A stretch of 64,000 nt of DNA from Nitrospira sp. CG24B. Lineage in GTDB: Bacteria > Nitrospirota > Nitrospiria > Nitrospirales > Nitrospiraceae. The DNA lies in the NCBI GenBank assembly GCA_002869845.2, contig NEWS02000008.1:213828-277827 (forward strand). The letters are read 5' to 3'. This document shows positions 1 to 4,497 of the stretch, in pieces. A program made the translations under genes and the position numbers. The notes under the pieces were generated by a model. It saw nothing but the letters and a program-made list of their open reading frames with translations. It did no database searches and was not told the DNA's origin. Position 1 is the stretch's first letter, and the number at the start of each line of letters is the position of its first letter.

Positions 1-445
1 CGCCGCAGCGGAAATACTCACGCCATTTCCCTTTACGAATGTCTTGCCGGAGCACGCGGTGGGCCAAGAAGAGCAGCAACTGCCGTTCCCACGCCAGTCC
101 GGTACCCTCGGATAGCGACGTACCGGGTGTGAATGAATAAAGCTGAAGGTTATCGGTGTTGCTGGCGCTCCACGCCAGTTGCGTAATCCTTCGTAGGGAA
201 GGAGGCGCGTTGGGAGCGAGCTTCGTCCGGTTCTGGTCGGCGATTTCGGAATTCGAACAGAGATAGACCACGACCAACTCTCGGCCCCGGCGGCGCCGAA
301 TGAGCTCTTCGATCACGCCGCGCGCAACAACAGTCTTGCCGAGGCCGACTTCATCAGCGAGAAGAAAGCGCCGTGATCCACCGGTGTCCGTCAAGCGCTC
401 GCAGATTGTCTCGACCGCCGCGCTTTGAAACTCCGCGAGTTTCAC
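1..445 (-). CDS. SNF2/DEAD-like helicase, N-terminal part (cut by window edge)
   Basis: Only about the first 148 residues are in the window. The start is a GTG one base after the stop of the PLD-like gene, so the two are translationally coupled. Residues 31-38 read DEVGLGKT, the Walker A form typical of SNF2-type superfamily 2 helicases, preceded by an FQ..AVE motif like the Q-motif region. The rest of the ATPase core lies outside the window. Together with the two genes upstream it forms a likely defence cassette in which the helicase would translocate on nucleic acid. The family call is good; the exact subfamily cannot be fixed from this fragment. Confidence 0.8.
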   Translation of the reverse strand, partial: MKLAEFQSAAVETICERLTDTGGSRRFLLADEVGLGKTVVARGVIEELIRRRRGRELVVVYLCSNSEIADQNRTKLAPNAPPSLRRITQLAWSASNTDNLQLYSFTPGTSLSEGTGLAWERQLLLFLAHRVLRQDIRKGKWREYFRCG

Positions 446-446
446 G

Positions 447-2237
447 CTAGACACCGGCGCTTTCCTCTTTGAGCGATTCCTGGAACACCGTCCAGAACTC
501 GCGGAATGCGCTCATGTTCGCAGCATCGCCGCAAGCGGCCAAGACGGCCTCGACCTCATGAACTCGGCTAGGATCCGCCGTGCACGCTTCAAGGATCCGC
601 TCGATAGTCGCCCGCCTCAGCAGCGGCTCACCGGCCTGCGCACCTGCGGAGTGCCGGTCGCCCGAGGAGCGCGACGTTCCGCCAGGCAGGCCGGCGAGGA
701 CGTCCAGAAGCAGGCTGCGAGCATCAACTCCCTCGAGAAGACGAGCGTTCACAGCTTTGTCCCGGTCGTCTGCGTCCCGGGCGCCGAGGTTCAGCTCGAA
801 CTGGACGACGAACGGCAGCTCGATGTCCTTGTGGTGTTCATTCGAGATGACGATGTAGGCGAAAGCGGCGACGTCCTCAAGGGCAATTCCCGGGAAGACC
901 GCACCCGAGCCGTAGACCAGACGGTAGTCGGCCCGTATCGCCTGATCCCGCTGGAGGAGCGGAATAATCTCGGCGCACATACCGGCAGGCCATCCCTGAG
1001 CACCCGCAGTGGACGGCGCGAGCAACCTCAAAGTCTTCTTGGTCGAGTCGTATTCACCGCGAATCTGGTCCGCGCGCAGGAGGCGCTTGAAGTTCTCCAG
1101 GCGCTTGGTGATCTCCTTTTCCTGGTCGGCGACGTCGGGCTGCCGCTCGTACCTCTCGATCCATGGTTGCAGCTGATCCTTGGCAGGTGAGACAAAGGCC
1201 TTCACGACTGCATCGATGCCGAGGCCTGGCCTGATCGACACCATCGCTTCACAGTTGACATTCGAACCACAGCCCCAGCCAGGGCCCGTGGCGTTGGCAG
1301 AGCCAATCAAGGTCTCGGACTCCCCCTCGGATTCCCACGCCAGCAGCTTGGCGTGAAGATCCAGCGACGGCACGTCTTCGTCGGCATCAGCCGAGATGAC
1401 GAAGACTCGTGCGCTTGCCAAGCGGGCGTAAGCCTCGTCGGATAATTGGTCGAGCTCGTCTTGCGTGCTGACGAGAGTCAGCTCGTCCGTCCGATCGCAC
1501 AGCCGCTTGAGAAAATCCGCGCGTAGAAATGGTGAAATCAGGAGGGCGCGCGACATAGCCCGTGGCAGCCTATTCATCAGCACCCGGTCTGCCGGCCACT
1601 GCCAATCGAATCTCAAGCCTTTGGCAGCCTCCCGAGGCGCAGCGAACTCGACGCTCTTGAGTTCTTCAATCAACTTCCACAGGGCTCTTGGCAGATCGCG
1701 GGAGGCCGCCACTTTCCGGCAGAAGGCAGATACCTCGGAGCCGAATTTCTGCGTGCCGGCTCGCCGCGTACCTTCGAATATCGCGCCGAGTTCCCAACAA
1801 CCAGAATTCGTCACGTTTCTGCTTGCCGTGAGCAAACGATAGATGGGCTCGACGCTGTGATGTTCTGGGCGTGCCACTGGGTCGAAGCGCAGCGCCCACA
1901 CCTTCGGATGGAACGCACCACTCTCCATGGTCTTCGGCCGCAGTAACCGGTCGTAGAGGGCGAACAGCCTGTTGGTCGTCGCTGGTGGGTGAAGGCTTCC
2001 CCCGTTGACGTAGACCCTGAGGCGAGACCGCAGCCGCGCGACGGTCATCAACACTGCCGGAGCATTGTTCAGAGGCTCTTCCACGTCTGCCCCAACAAAA
2101 GCCAAGAGCACTGCAGTGAACAGCTCAAAGTCGAGGCTATACGTCGTGCCAATGCACGCGCCCAGTACATATCCAGGCGGTGGGCGTAGCGCATCGGTAA
2201 AGGCGCTTCTCTGGCGCGTTACATCGAGAACGCTCAT
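447..2237 (-). CDS. Phospholipase D-like protein of a putative defence cassette
   Basis: A 596-residue protein with two PLD-type motifs. The first is H110-P-K112 followed by D119 and a S139-R-N segment. The second is H295-A-K297 followed by IGSAN (311-315). Paired HxK motifs form the active site of PLD-family nucleases and lipases. In helicase-linked loci (DISARM DrmC, Mokosh) such proteins are nucleases or effectors, so nuclease activity is inferred here. No signal peptide or membrane segment is evident, so it is probably cytoplasmic. The ATG overlaps the stop of the DUF6361 gene (ATGA) and the helicase starts one base after its stop. Function within the cassette is not established. Confidence 0.75.
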   Translation of the reverse strand: MSVLDVTRQRSAFTDALRPPPGYVLGACIGTTYSLDFELFTAVLLAFVGADVEEPLNNAPAVLMTVARLRSRLRVYVNGGSLHPPATTNRLFALYDRLLRPKTMESGAFHPKVWALRFDPVARPEHHSVEPIYRLLTASRNVTNSGCWELGAIFEGTRRAGTQKFGSEVSAFCRKVAASRDLPRALWKLIEELKSVEFAAPREAAKGLRFDWQWPADRVLMNRLPRAMSRALLISPFLRADFLKRLCDRTDELTLVSTQDELDQLSDEAYARLASARVFVISADADEDVPSLDLHAKLLAWESEGESETLIGSANATGPGWGCGSNVNCEAMVSIRPGLGIDAVVKAFVSPAKDQLQPWIERYERQPDVADQEKEITKRLENFKRLLRADQIRGEYDSTKKTLRLLAPSTAGAQGWPAGMCAEIIPLLQRDQAIRADYRLVYGSGAVFPGIALEDVAAFAYIVISNEHHKDIELPFVVQFELNLGARDADDRDKAVNARLLEGVDARSLLLDVLAGLPGGTSRSSGDRHSAGAQAGEPLLRRATIERILEACTADPSRVHEVEAVLAACGDAANMSAFREFWTVFQESLKEESAGV

Positions 2238-3460
2238 TGGCCACGCTCCATGCCGTCGAGGATCTCGGAGACAAACCGCGAGCCGATGCTATGTCGGTAG
2301 TCAAACTGGTAGACACCTTCGCTCACCCGAGCGGGCTTCCACTGCTTCAGGTGCTTCTCATATTTGAGGCGCGACTTGGCGGGTTTGACTCGCCGCTCTC
2401 GCTCTCGGACCAAATCCCTCGCCGTCTTGTCGCTCAGGAGAGCTTCCGCGGTCGACGCAGCGACACACCTCTCAAGCCAGCCATCGATGAACCACCTATC
2501 GCCTCGATTTCCTGGGCGCAATGCGGATGCCACAGTTGGCACAGCCACAAACTCGCTCGTGCTCCAGTTCTTCAGAGGGCCTCTGGCCTCAGCCCACCAT
2601 TGCTCGAAGACCGGTTGCACTGCGTTCGTCGCCTTCCGGATCCCCAGTTTGTCCTGTTCTTCGATCAAGAGAGCGTAGTACTGGAACGTTGCGCCTCGTA
2701 CAAGGAGGCTCATGTTTCTGGCGTGCCCGAGCCAGACTGCGAGTTCCGGCGAGGGCTTCGGGCAATCCCACGGCCACTGAATGCCAACGAGGCGGTGCGC
2801 GAGCATGTGCGACAACAGTGAATCGGGAAATCTCGAGGTGAACCGCTTGTGCAGATCCTGGGCCTCCGCCTTCGTGAGCTTGAATGTTTCTCCTGACTTC
2901 ACCTGCCCTTCTGAATCCAGGAACCTTGCCGGCGGAAGATCAGTGGCCCAATACTGCACACCTTCAGGCCCCTGTCCCGTCTTGTCGTCGTCCTGATAGC
3001 CTCGACGACTGCGCCGGATGTCGTCGAACTGCTCCTGATACGCGCCTTCGGAGAGGCTCGATGTCAACATTCCAAGCTTGCGCAGTCCGCTCCAGTAGAT
3101 GAGCGAAGGGAACTGCCTAAGGTTAATACCGGCTTCCCGACCGATGACACCCACTGTTTCCTTGGCGGCGAGAACGTCCCTCAGCTCATCCTGTCGCTGC
3201 ATTGCGAAGTGAGCAACGTGGCTCGCACGAACGCCTTCGCGTTCGAGCAGCCTGTAGATTCCAGCGACGAAGTAAAAATATCGAGCGGATCGCATCAGCG
3301 TGGTGGTCGCCGGATGCAATAGGTCAGAAAAGCGCCCCAGAAGAGCGAGGAAACCAAGCTCGTCGATAACGCCTTCTTCTTGAAGCGATCGAATAAAATC
3401 GCGCGCTTGCGAGAGATCGTCAGCGCGAAAGTCAAGCCAAGTCACTGTATCGTGCTTCAT
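2234..3460 (-). CDS. DUF6361 family protein
   Basis: A 408-residue protein whose N-terminus (WLDF at 9-12, a DELGF segment near 34-38, then a RSARYFYFV segment near 57-65) matches my memory of the uncharacterised DUF6361 family. The remainder is mixed alpha/beta with no catalytic motif I recognise and no membrane segment. It is the first gene of the cassette, starting one base after the stop of the broken HD gene and overlapping the PLD-like gene by four bases. Placement beside a helicase and a PLD-like protein suggests it is a sensor or scaffold in a defence module, but this is context only. Confidence 0.7.
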   Translation of the reverse strand: MKHDTVTWLDFRADDLSQARDFIRSLQEEGVIDELGFLALLGRFSDLLHPATTTLMRSARYFYFVAGIYRLLEREGVRASHVAHFAMQRQDELRDVLAAKETVGVIGREAGINLRQFPSLIYWSGLRKLGMLTSSLSEGAYQEQFDDIRRSRRGYQDDDKTGQGPEGVQYWATDLPPARFLDSEGQVKSGETFKLTKAEAQDLHKRFTSRFPDSLLSHMLAHRLVGIQWPWDCPKPSPELAVWLGHARNMSLLVRGATFQYYALLIEEQDKLGIRKATNAVQPVFEQWWAEARGPLKNWSTSEFVAVPTVASALRPGNRGDRWFIDGWLERCVAASTAEALLSDKTARDLVRERERRVKPAKSRLKYEKHLKQWKPARVSEGVYQFDYRHSIGSRFVSEILDGMERGQ

Positions 3461-3461
3461 G

Positions 3462-3848
3462 TCAGACTTCGCAGACCGCTGCGGCTACAAGTTTCACCGA
3501 CGGTGACGCCGCGCGAAGATGATGGAGATATCGCTCTTTTCGTTCCCTCCAAGGTGGCTTGAGCTGCACATCTGTATCCGTGCAGCCATCAATGATCGCG
3601 GCGACGCGCTCGCCGAATTGTGCCCGGATCATCTCCCATGTGGGCCGACCACCCTGATCTTCTATGGTATCGTGGAACAATCCTGCGATCGCTTCATCCT
3701 GATCTCCACCATGCGTGATGACGAGACTCGCCACTGCCAACAGGTGGGCGATATAAGGGATTTCCGTCCCTTTCCTTGTTTGGGTGGCATGAAGCCGTGC
3801 TGTAAAGGTCAGGGCATCTTCGAAGCGTTGAGATAAACCCGAACTCAT
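3462..3848 (-). pseudogene. SpoT/RelA-like HD-domain protein, 3' truncated
   Basis: The N-terminal part of a small stand-alone HD hydrolase related to the (p)ppGpp hydrolase domain of SpoT. It has TRKGTEIPYIAHL and the HD...ED motif (FHDTIED), then a conserved CTD segment. ATG at 3848 is chosen over 3869 because GGAGG precedes it by 10 bases. Family members normally run on through a DKLHNAR motif that supplies a metal-ligand Asp. Here the frame passes from VAAA into four unrelated residues and stops, about 50-60 residues early. The break coincides with the start of the DUF6361 cassette, so this looks like a gene cut by insertion and probably inactive. Its promoter may now serve the cassette. 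Confidence 0.7.
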
Positions 3849-4134
3849 GTACACCGATCCTCCCACCATGTGGTAATTCGCTTCTTCTGCTAAGTAATAC
3901 TCTATGGTTTAGTTGGTCAGCGAGAAACTAAGCTCTAATTTGCCATAGGGTTCGCAATACAAAAAGCTTCTGGCAGAAATGCACTCACCGAATACGGTGA
4001 CAGGTGGGACAAGATTCAATTCTTATTACCGATCGGGAGTTGTTATTTCCCATCTGTCATTCCGTTGGCATCCTGGTATCTCATCCCTTCCTACGGTACA
4101 GTGATAGGGTTTATATCCGCTTTGGAAGAACGAT

Positions 4135-4497
4135 ATGCACCCCGTGCTCCGACAAGCCTATAAGGCTGAAATGACGGCGGCGGTCAGCCGGTACGACACC
4201 GGAGACCTCCAACTCGCATTTTCACATCTTGAACGGGCCCACATCTTAGGACAATCATTTTCGGTTGCCCATGCGCGGACACACTGGTGGATGCTGAAGG
4301 TTGGTTGGAGGCGCCGAGATTTCGTAGAAATTGCCGGTCAACTGCCTCGGATCCTGGGAGCTCTGCTGTTTTCACGAATTTGGGTGCCGATAGGCAATAC
4401 TGGCGGGGCACGAGTGCCACCATTCAAATCCATGCCGATTCCTGAAGATCTGCAGGCGTTACTGGATAAATATGGGCGAGATGCCAAAACGGTATAA
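4135..4497 (+). CDS. DUF3703 domain protein
   Basis: A 120-residue soluble protein with the DUF3703 pattern: a TPR-like N-terminal helix pair containing FSHLERAHILGQ (about 29-40), then RTHWWMLKVGWRRRD, a VPIGNTGGA segment and the closing MPIPEDL. Function of the family is unknown; members often lie near metal-resistance genes, but none is seen beside this one. The 5' region (3870-4134) is AT-richer than its surroundings, with no convincing -35/-10 pair. Its stop is 23 bases from the convergent permease stop. Confidence 0.8.
   Translation: MHPVLRQAYKAEMTAAVSRYDTGDLQLAFSHLERAHILGQSFSVAHARTHWWMLKVGWRRRDFVEIAGQLPRILGALLFSRIWVPIGNTGGARVPPFKSMPIPEDLQALLDKYGRDAKTV

What the first reader, a model, noticed from the sequence alone, without database searches (positions are those of the whole stretch)
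1..3460. Putative helicase-PLD-DUF6361 defence cassette at the left edge
Seen: three minus-strand genes with 4-base or 1-base junctions: DUF6361-type protein, PLD-like protein with two HxK motifs, and a protein with DEVGLGKT Walker A. Known: helicase plus PLD sets occur in anti-phage systems such as DISARM and Mokosh. Inference: this is a defence module. No methyltransferase or restriction enzyme is seen, so it is not an obvious full DISARM. The helicase is cut off, so further components may lie to the left. I cannot tell whether this trio is already catalogued.
Basis: partly seen in the sequence, partly recalled or inferred. Interest (0 to 1): 0.72.

Follow-up and report, generated by a model that had tools for sequence, protein, structure and literature searches.

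The report
An Azaca anti-phage defence operon
Three neighbouring bacterial genes form a complete copy of Azaca, an already catalogued anti-virus defence set whose workings are still unknown, placed where close relatives carry other genes or almost nothing.

Summary
The trio is real and complete. The helicase is cut only by the window edge: in the parent contig it runs to 1141 aa and is followed by a tRNA-Met, so no further component lies to the left. All three proteins match, nearly full length, the PADLOC models ZacC (E 1.4e-259), ZacB (1.1e-110) and ZacA (2.1e-81): the proteins of Azaca, a named anti-phage system whose mechanism is called unknown in papers I could read. It is a divergent member (ZacA and ZacB 19-33% identical to the homologues aligned) of a known kind, not DISARM or Mokosh. 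The order ZacA-ZacB-ZacC recurs across phyla, archaea included (63 of 64 loci with room). The cassette lies in a tRNA-Met-linked variable spot and interrupts an HD-domain gene; three of eight relatives have almost nothing there. ZacB has a two-domain phospholipase-D fold with invariant catalytic residues; ZacC is an intact SF2 helicase; ZacA is all-helical without a convincing structural match. Most likely mechanism (inferred): helicase-guided cutting of invading DNA by ZacB, gated by ZacA. One possibly unreported point: an AddAB-like helicase-nuclease pair lies near Azaca in 15 of 91 loci, though not here.

The parts
1..454 (-). zacC, 5' part: SF2 helicase. The gene continues left of the window to contig position C19:210856 (whole gene L002 14857-18282, 1141 aa)
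   Evidence: PADLOC ZacC E 1.4e-259 over residues 5-1023; full gene in L002; key residues of the helicase motifs at least 95% conserved among own and 64 homologues
447..2237 (-). zacB: two-domain phospholipase-D-fold protein, 596 aa; HxK at H110/K112 and H295/K297, N315, E330
   Evidence: PADLOC ZacB E 1.1e-110; invariant residues; model pLDDT 85.2, Z 19.0-21.6 in the 50 rows shown, PLD-fold enzymes
2234..3460 (-). zacA: DUF6361 protein, 408 aa, all-helical model
   Evidence: PADLOC ZacA E 2.1e-81; Pfam PF19888 E 7.5e-29; model pLDDT 88.2
3461..3477 (.). cassette edge: the 17 bases between the zacA start and the first base homologous to the interrupted HD gene
   Evidence: alignment with G101 starts at window 3478
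3462..3869 (-). 3'-truncated HD_4 (RelA/SpoT-type HD) gene: the first 131 of 194 residues remain, then 4 residues read from the cassette side
   Evidence: Pfam HD_4 E 7.4e-20; full-length homologue in G101, 84% identical over 131 residues

Best explanation
The trio is an intact Azaca anti-phage operon (zacA-zacB-zacC), acquired horizontally at a tRNA-Met-linked variable spot (identity about 0.97). How it works is inferred (about 0.5): ZacC, an SF2 ATPase with sequence similarity to DISARM DrmD, DpdE and BREX helicases, loads on and moves along incoming phage or plasmid DNA. ZacB, a PLD-fold phosphodiesterase with two HxK half-sites (such enzymes usually need no metal; recalled), cuts that DNA when coupled to ZacC. 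ZacA, a helical protein that stands before ZacB in every fetched locus with room, is the adaptor or sensor that restrains or licenses ZacB-ZacC. No methyltransferase stands out as a regular partner, so self and non-self are probably told apart by a DNA state (modified bases, ends, gaps or forks) rather than by host methylation.
For: Shown: near full-length matches of all three to ZacA, ZacB and ZacC, and of a second trio from another genome of the same family. Order A-B-C on one strand: ZacB follows ZacA in 76 of 76 loci with room, ZacB and ZacC both in 63 of 64 with room, of 80 fetched; also in all eight plasmid or phage-collection records opened. ZacB catalytic residues invariant in 66 sequences; PLD fold. 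Key residues of ZacC motifs I, II, III, V and VI conserved. ZacB's profile matches chain 7clg 'Putative helicase' at E 1.1e-6 (recalled as SauUSI). Patchy distribution: own genome only among 59; 7 of 395 phylum genomes, 4 strong, and 0 of 14 control genomes. GC 59.6% against 54.4-54.9% in the flanks. Azaca is listed as a defence system with ZacC as its helicase (PMC12278908, passage) and with a PLD-like domain (PMC10952713, passage).
Against: Sequence cannot show activity. The substrate is untested: PLD-fold enzymes also act on lipids, and lipid enzymes are among the structural hits at tied Z. The regulatory role of ZacA is inference only: no convincing structural match and no related solved sequence (best E 0.051). 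No sigma-70-like promoter was found at 3300-4200 (0.8 expected by chance), so expression is unproven.
Confidence: 0.8

Rival explanations
1. Modification-dependent restriction: ZacABC recognises modified (for example 5mC or 5hmC) phage DNA and cuts it, as the single-chain PLD-helicase SauUSI does (recalled).
For: ZacB's profile finds chain 7clg 'Putative helicase' (recalled as SauUSI) at E 1.1e-6, and weakly NucT, R.NgoVII and chain 2c1l (E 0.26-0.8). Among recurrent neighbour clusters the only methyltransferase noted is HsdM, seen in 5 loci, mostly with HsdR.
Against: No modified-base reader domain (SRA, EVE, B3) was matched in any of the three proteins at E up to 1. In the 7clg search two designed coiled-coil chains scored better than NucT (E 0.0024 and 0.03), so the weaker hits carry little weight. 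A shared PLD motif does not show a shared trigger.
Confidence: 0.25
2. DNA-integrity sensing and suicide: ZacC holds the nuclease off until it meets damaged or ssDNA-containing intermediates, then ZacB degrades all DNA in the cell, as the helicase-nuclease pair Hachiman (HamAB) does.
For: Same parts list, helicase plus nuclease; in Hachiman the helicase is the sensor and constrains the nuclease (PMC12278908, start of abstract in the listing).
Against: The nuclease families differ (PLD here; HamA recalled as another family). Nothing here tests host DNA damage.
Confidence: 0.25
3. It is a degenerate DISARM or Mokosh locus.
For: In NCBIfam the best model for ZacC is DISARM DrmD (66.8 bits); in PADLOC the best model after ZacC is PDC-M27C (73.6 bits), then DrmD (59.2 bits). 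Mokosh also has a PLD-like domain (PMC10952713, passage).
Against: DrmD 66.8 bits against a cut-off of 610 and DrmC 12.8 against 133; ZacB matches ZacB alone in PADLOC; no Mko model among the 25 shown of 27 families for ZacC.
Confidence: 0.02
4. A DNA-repair or housekeeping helicase cluster with no defence role.
For: ZacC is distantly like RapA, an RNA-polymerase-associated ATPase.
Against: Not found in the 58 other genomes of 59 (43 of the 59 are of high quality), at a variable spot, on 38 plasmid records, with HsdR in 12 of 91 neighbourhoods.
Confidence: 0.03

Closest known systems
Azaca (ZacA, ZacB, ZacC); original report recalled as Millman et al. 2022, not held here
   Same: All three proteins, nearly full length, same order and strand
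   Different: Divergent copy. No reference locus was fetched; the comparison is with the PADLOC models and with homologues found here. Sits against a truncated HD gene and near tRNA-Met
SauUSI and CglI/NgoAVII-type PLD-plus-helicase restriction (recalled)
   Same: PLD nuclease working with an SF2 ATPase; profile match of ZacB to chain 7clg at E 1.1e-6 and weak matches to R.NgoVII and 2c1l
   Different: Separate genes; ZacB has two HxK halves in one chain; an extra protein ZacA; no recognisable DNA-reader domain found
DISARM (DrmC PLD protein, DrmD helicase)
   Same: PLD protein plus SNF2-like helicase of related sequence
   Different: Below model cut-offs; ZacA has no DISARM match
Hachiman (HamAB)
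   Same: Helicase plus nuclease defence logic
   Different: Subunit number and, as recalled, nuclease family differ; the trigger of Azaca is unknown

Membership tests
Azaca | three adjacent co-directional genes zacA, zacB, zacC | tested here: met
   ORFs at 3460-2234, 2237-447 and 454 to left of the window; same order in 63 of 64 loci with room
Azaca | each protein matches its PADLOC Zac model over most of its length | tested here: met
   ZacC 5-1023 of 1141, ZacB 4-592 of 596, ZacA 5-405 of 408
Azaca | PLD-like domain with catalytic residues | tested here: met
   invariant HxK pairs, PLD fold
Azaca | intact SF2 helicase motifs in ZacC | tested here: met
   key residues of DEVGLGKT, DEVQR, SATPY, TSVGQEGLD and QREGR present in own and at least 95% conserved with 64 homologues
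Azaca | protection against phage | not testable with these tools
   needs plaque assays
DISARM | DrmD and DrmC above model cut-offs | tested here: not met
   66.8 of 610 bits; 12.8 of 133 bits
DISARM | DrmA, DrmB and a methyltransferase nearby | not tested
   the flanking ORFs were read by eye only; none looked like these
Mokosh | Mko proteins | tested here: not met
   ZacB matches ZacB only; no Mko model among the 25 shown of 27 families for ZacC
SauUSI / NgoAVII-like restriction | PLD nuclease, SF2 ATPase and a DNA-reader domain | tested here: inconclusive
   PLD and ATPase present; no reader domain found in the library searches; one clear and several weak profile matches

The most novel reading that the evidence does not exclude
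Azaca is one half of a larger two-stage DNA-destroying machine: ZacBC makes the first cuts in invading DNA, and an AddAB-type helicase-nuclease pair, carried near the operon in 15 of 91 loci and supplied by the host's own AddAB or RecBCD elsewhere, resects the ends. ZacA, whose model has no convincing match among solved structures, would be a new type of sensor or gate.
Probability: 0.25. Interest if true: 0.45.

Novelty: new member of a known kind. Interest (0 to 1): 0.25.

Why it matters
For this locus: it takes a candidate 'new helicase-PLD system' off the list and shows a spot where this genus swaps cargo, defence genes included. More widely: Azaca's mechanism is given as unknown in two papers seen here (PMC10482375 and PMC12926258, passages). 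The invariant ZacB and ZacC residues, the helical ZacA model and the AddAB-like neighbours give concrete, testable predictions for how it could destroy phage DNA.

Tried and rejected
DISARM and Mokosh membership: rejected on model scores. 'More components to the left': rejected; a tRNA-Met (L002 14492-14567) and an SDR gene follow, with no ORF of 100 aa or more between helicase and tRNA. An AddAB-like partner in this locus: no; the own genome has one AddB-like gene, on another contig (C12). Integration repeats: only chance-like matches of up to 13 bp between the two cassette ends, so the route of entry is unresolved. ZacA fold: Foldseek against PDB gave 86 matches at E up to 10, none at 0.001 or better, best E 1.2; VIA-align best Z 4.0; a missing match does not prove a new fold. 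Literature: DUF6361 in 0 papers; ZacA/B/C, Zorya-associated and zacABC gave nothing relevant (my early guess that Zac meant Zorya-associated was wrong); 'Azaca' is in 28 papers, many of them unrelated. The 2021 and 2022 PADLOC papers hold no word starting with 'zac' in the main text. The YprA and BREX papers (passages) hold no DUF6361; 'Zac' was searched in the BREX paper only, with 0 hits. Azaca together with AddAB: 0 papers, a looser search, showed 5 of 73 papers, none with Azaca. I recognised Azaca from memory; passages bear out the name, ZacC as its helicase and the PLD-like domain; the original paper was not held. A TIR domain that I first saw by eye in the 1115-aa protein of G007 was not among the 25 shown of 46 Pfam families; WD40 repeats were, so I dropped it. 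A taxonomy look-up of 'Azaca' found nothing.

Rows dropped and limits: ORFs under 90 aa were left out of neighbour clustering. My gene caller mislabels some GC-rich loci, so recounted the trio in six frames. Loci too short to hold the partner were left out of its counts (76 of 80 for ZacB, 64 of 80 for both). The one exception with room is L051, where ZacB matches over a short stretch only. Several loci look like near-duplicates by gene lengths (for example L077/L102, L025/L026, L083/L084/L088). The 80 loci are those closest to the own ZacA of 257. I gave the structure jobs 71 of 80 ZacA and 65 of 73 ZacB homologues. No chance control was run for HsdR or the other single neighbours. L029, L084 and L095 were matched to the AddB-like places with shifts of about 12 to 30 bases.
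Full report
What was seen. The window's left edge holds three minus-strand ORFs as described. The helicase is complete there: L002 14857-18282, 1141 aa. Beyond it come about 290 bases, a tRNA-Met (L002 14492-14567) and an SDR gene. The cassette is thus three genes, with overlaps of 4 bases (zacA-zacB) and 8 bases (zacB-zacC).

What it is. PADLOC-DB names the three proteins ZacC (E 1.4e-259), ZacB (1.1e-110) and ZacA (2.1e-81), each over nearly the whole length. Pfam gives DUF6361 for ZacA (7.5e-29) and only weak helicase matches for ZacC. NCBIfam gives DISARM DrmD at 66.8 bits against a cut-off of 610 and DrmC at 12.8 against 133, so DISARM is not met. ZacA, ZacB and ZacC are the components of Azaca. 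I recognised this from memory (Millman et al. 2022, not held). PMC12278908 lists 'Azaca (ZacC)' among defence helicases (passage), PMC10952713 lists Azaca under the PLD-like domain (passage), PMC10121019 names it among the systems sought in E. coli genomes (passage), and PMC10482375 and PMC12926258 give its mechanism as unknown (passages).

Recurrence. One pattern scan of the collection of 84,980 species genomes gave 298 stretches, 257 of which encode a ZacA relative; the best 80 were fetched. They span many bacterial phyla and include a haloarchaeon. In six-frame search, ZacB follows ZacA in 76 of 76 loci with room, and ZacB plus ZacC in 63 of 64 with room. The trio is also on plasmids: 38 of 72,556 records have a ZacA match, 35 of them covering at least 80% of it. 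All eight plasmid or phage-collection records that I opened hold the trio in the same order, among them an archaeal plasmid. The phage collection gave one match in 50,697 records, an unverified gut scaffold with type I restriction genes. Among 59 relatives only the own genome has ZacA. In the phylum 7 of 395 do, of which 4 strong and 3 weak short matches; 0 of 14 control genomes. The copy in another genome of the same family is only 28% (ZacA), 26% (ZacB) and 32% (ZacC) identical, no closer than the ZacA and ZacB of other phyla (19-33%), which points to independent acquisition.

Genomic spot. I took the same spot from eight relatives chosen for a 91-97% identical permease. One contig ends too soon (G267). 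Three are nearly empty: G019 about 0.2 kb between the tRNA-Met end and the permease side, G085 about 0.6 kb, and G303 about 0.1 kb, though G303 has also lost the tRNA. Four carry other cargo: G127 a type I restriction system with a PDC-M24 protein; G007 a 1115-aa WD40-repeat protein with a HEAT-ARM defence-model match and a second tRNA-like copy; G101 genes with a weak PDC-S11 match; and G094 a phage-type integrase (E 1.1e-22) with a 49-bp exact copy of the tRNA end. The HD-domain ORF beside zacA is the first 131 of 194 residues of a gene that is whole in G101; DNA homology stops at window 3478, leaving 17 bases before the zacA start. That HD gene is in 6 of 79 genus genomes, the own truncated copy included. 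So the cassette most likely entered this gene. No end repeats were found. GC of the cassette is 59.6% against 54.4-54.9% in the flanks.

Anatomy. ZacB: 66 sequences keep F109-H110-x-K112-x-W114, R140-N141, W148, L294-H295-x-K297, G312-S313-x-N315-x-T317, N328 and E330 invariant, two PLD half-sites. The model (mean pLDDT 85.2) aligns with PLD-fold enzymes over residues 1 to about 370: PLD 7e0m Z 21.6 (rmsd 3.5, 291 aligned), yeast and human Tdp1 20.9, PLD3 20.6. These are tied and the list includes lipid enzymes, so the fold does not show the substrate. By profile ZacB finds 7clg 'Putative helicase' (E 1.1e-6), two designed coiled-coil chains through its C-terminal helices (0.0024 and 0.03), then weakly NucT, R.NgoVII and 2c1l. 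ZacC: key residues of motifs I, II, III, V and VI are at least 95% conserved among own and 64 homologues; nearest solved sequence RapA, E 5e-4. ZacA: 72 sequences keep 17 invariant residues, among them five Trp, three Arg and one Lys. Its model is all-helical and confident (88.2); no PDB chain matched convincingly by fold or sequence.

Neighbours. Among 91 loci (L012-L102), clusters of flanking ORFs show a UvrD-type helicase in 18, type I HsdR in 12, WYL regulators and ADP-ribosylglycohydrolases in 6 each, HNH nucleases and a Mokosh-like helicase in 5 each, Mrr in 4 (names rest on one representative each). In 15 loci the UvrD-type gene comes with a PD-(D/E)XK AddB-like gene (L014, L017, L018, L028, L029, L041, L052, L054, L056, L059, L066, L079, L083, L084, L095). 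In 9 of these 15 the pair lies within 200 bases of the trio; in the others 0.7-2.8 kb away. Six of these PD-(D/E)XK proteins were scanned against Pfam and all six match PDDEXK_1; one, L028, also matches ADDB_N. To test chance I searched the genomes of the 80 loci for AddB-like genes: 49 genomes gave 43 places and 30 gave 22 at E 1e-10 or better, pieces of one gene counted apart. Comparing coordinates by hand, 12 of these 65 lie inside the fetched loci, against 0.23 expected from loci length over genome length. Of the 17 at E 1e-100 or better, 11 lie inside, and a twelfth, by its coordinates, about 1.2 kb beyond the edge of L043; five lie elsewhere or could not be placed. Caveats: the profile was built from Azaca-adjacent pairs, and defence islands attract nucleases anyway. 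No paper in the library holds both 'Azaca' and 'AddAB'. In the own genome the one AddB-like gene is on another contig.

Mechanism. Shown: intact catalytic motifs, tight operon, mobility, defence company. Inferred: ZacC moves on DNA, ZacB cuts it, ZacA gates them. The lack of a regular methyltransferase partner among the neighbour clusters argues for sensing a DNA state rather than host methylation. The choice between modified-base restriction and integrity-sensing suicide is open.

Verdict. A complete, probably functional Azaca operon: a new divergent member of a known kind, ordinary as a finding, with a modest extra in the AddAB-like association and the orphan-looking ZacA model.

Noticed in passing
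window 3462-3869 (-): HD_4 (RelA/SpoT-type HD) gene cut to 131 of 194 residues at the cassette edge; whole in G101 and G018 beside the same permease gene.
   Followed up: yes
L002 14492-14567 to window about 4135: tRNA-Met-linked spot with different cargo in close relatives: type I restriction, a WD40-repeat protein, a PDC-S11-like protein, a phage-type integrase with a 49-bp copy of the tRNA end, or almost nothing.
   Followed up: partly
L014, L017, L018, L028, L029, L041, L052, L054, L056, L059, L066, L079, L083, L084, L095: AddAB-like UvrD helicase plus PD-(D/E)XK nuclease pair near Azaca, far above the chance estimate.
   Followed up: partly
L077 4923-9886; like layout in L102 and L057: A DrmD-like helicase (PADLOC DrmD E 2.9e-225 in L077) followed by a 501-623 aa protein without a PADLOC match stands just before zacA; a possible second module.
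   Followed up: no
L019 (MT835621.1): A record filed as 'Bacteriophage sp.' carries type I restriction genes and a full Azaca trio; by its genes it looks like a bacterial or island scaffold rather than a phage.
   Followed up: no
L044 3131-5248 (-): Second, larger ZacB-like protein (706 aa) in the haloarchaeal locus, without a PADLOC match at 1e-10.
   Followed up: no
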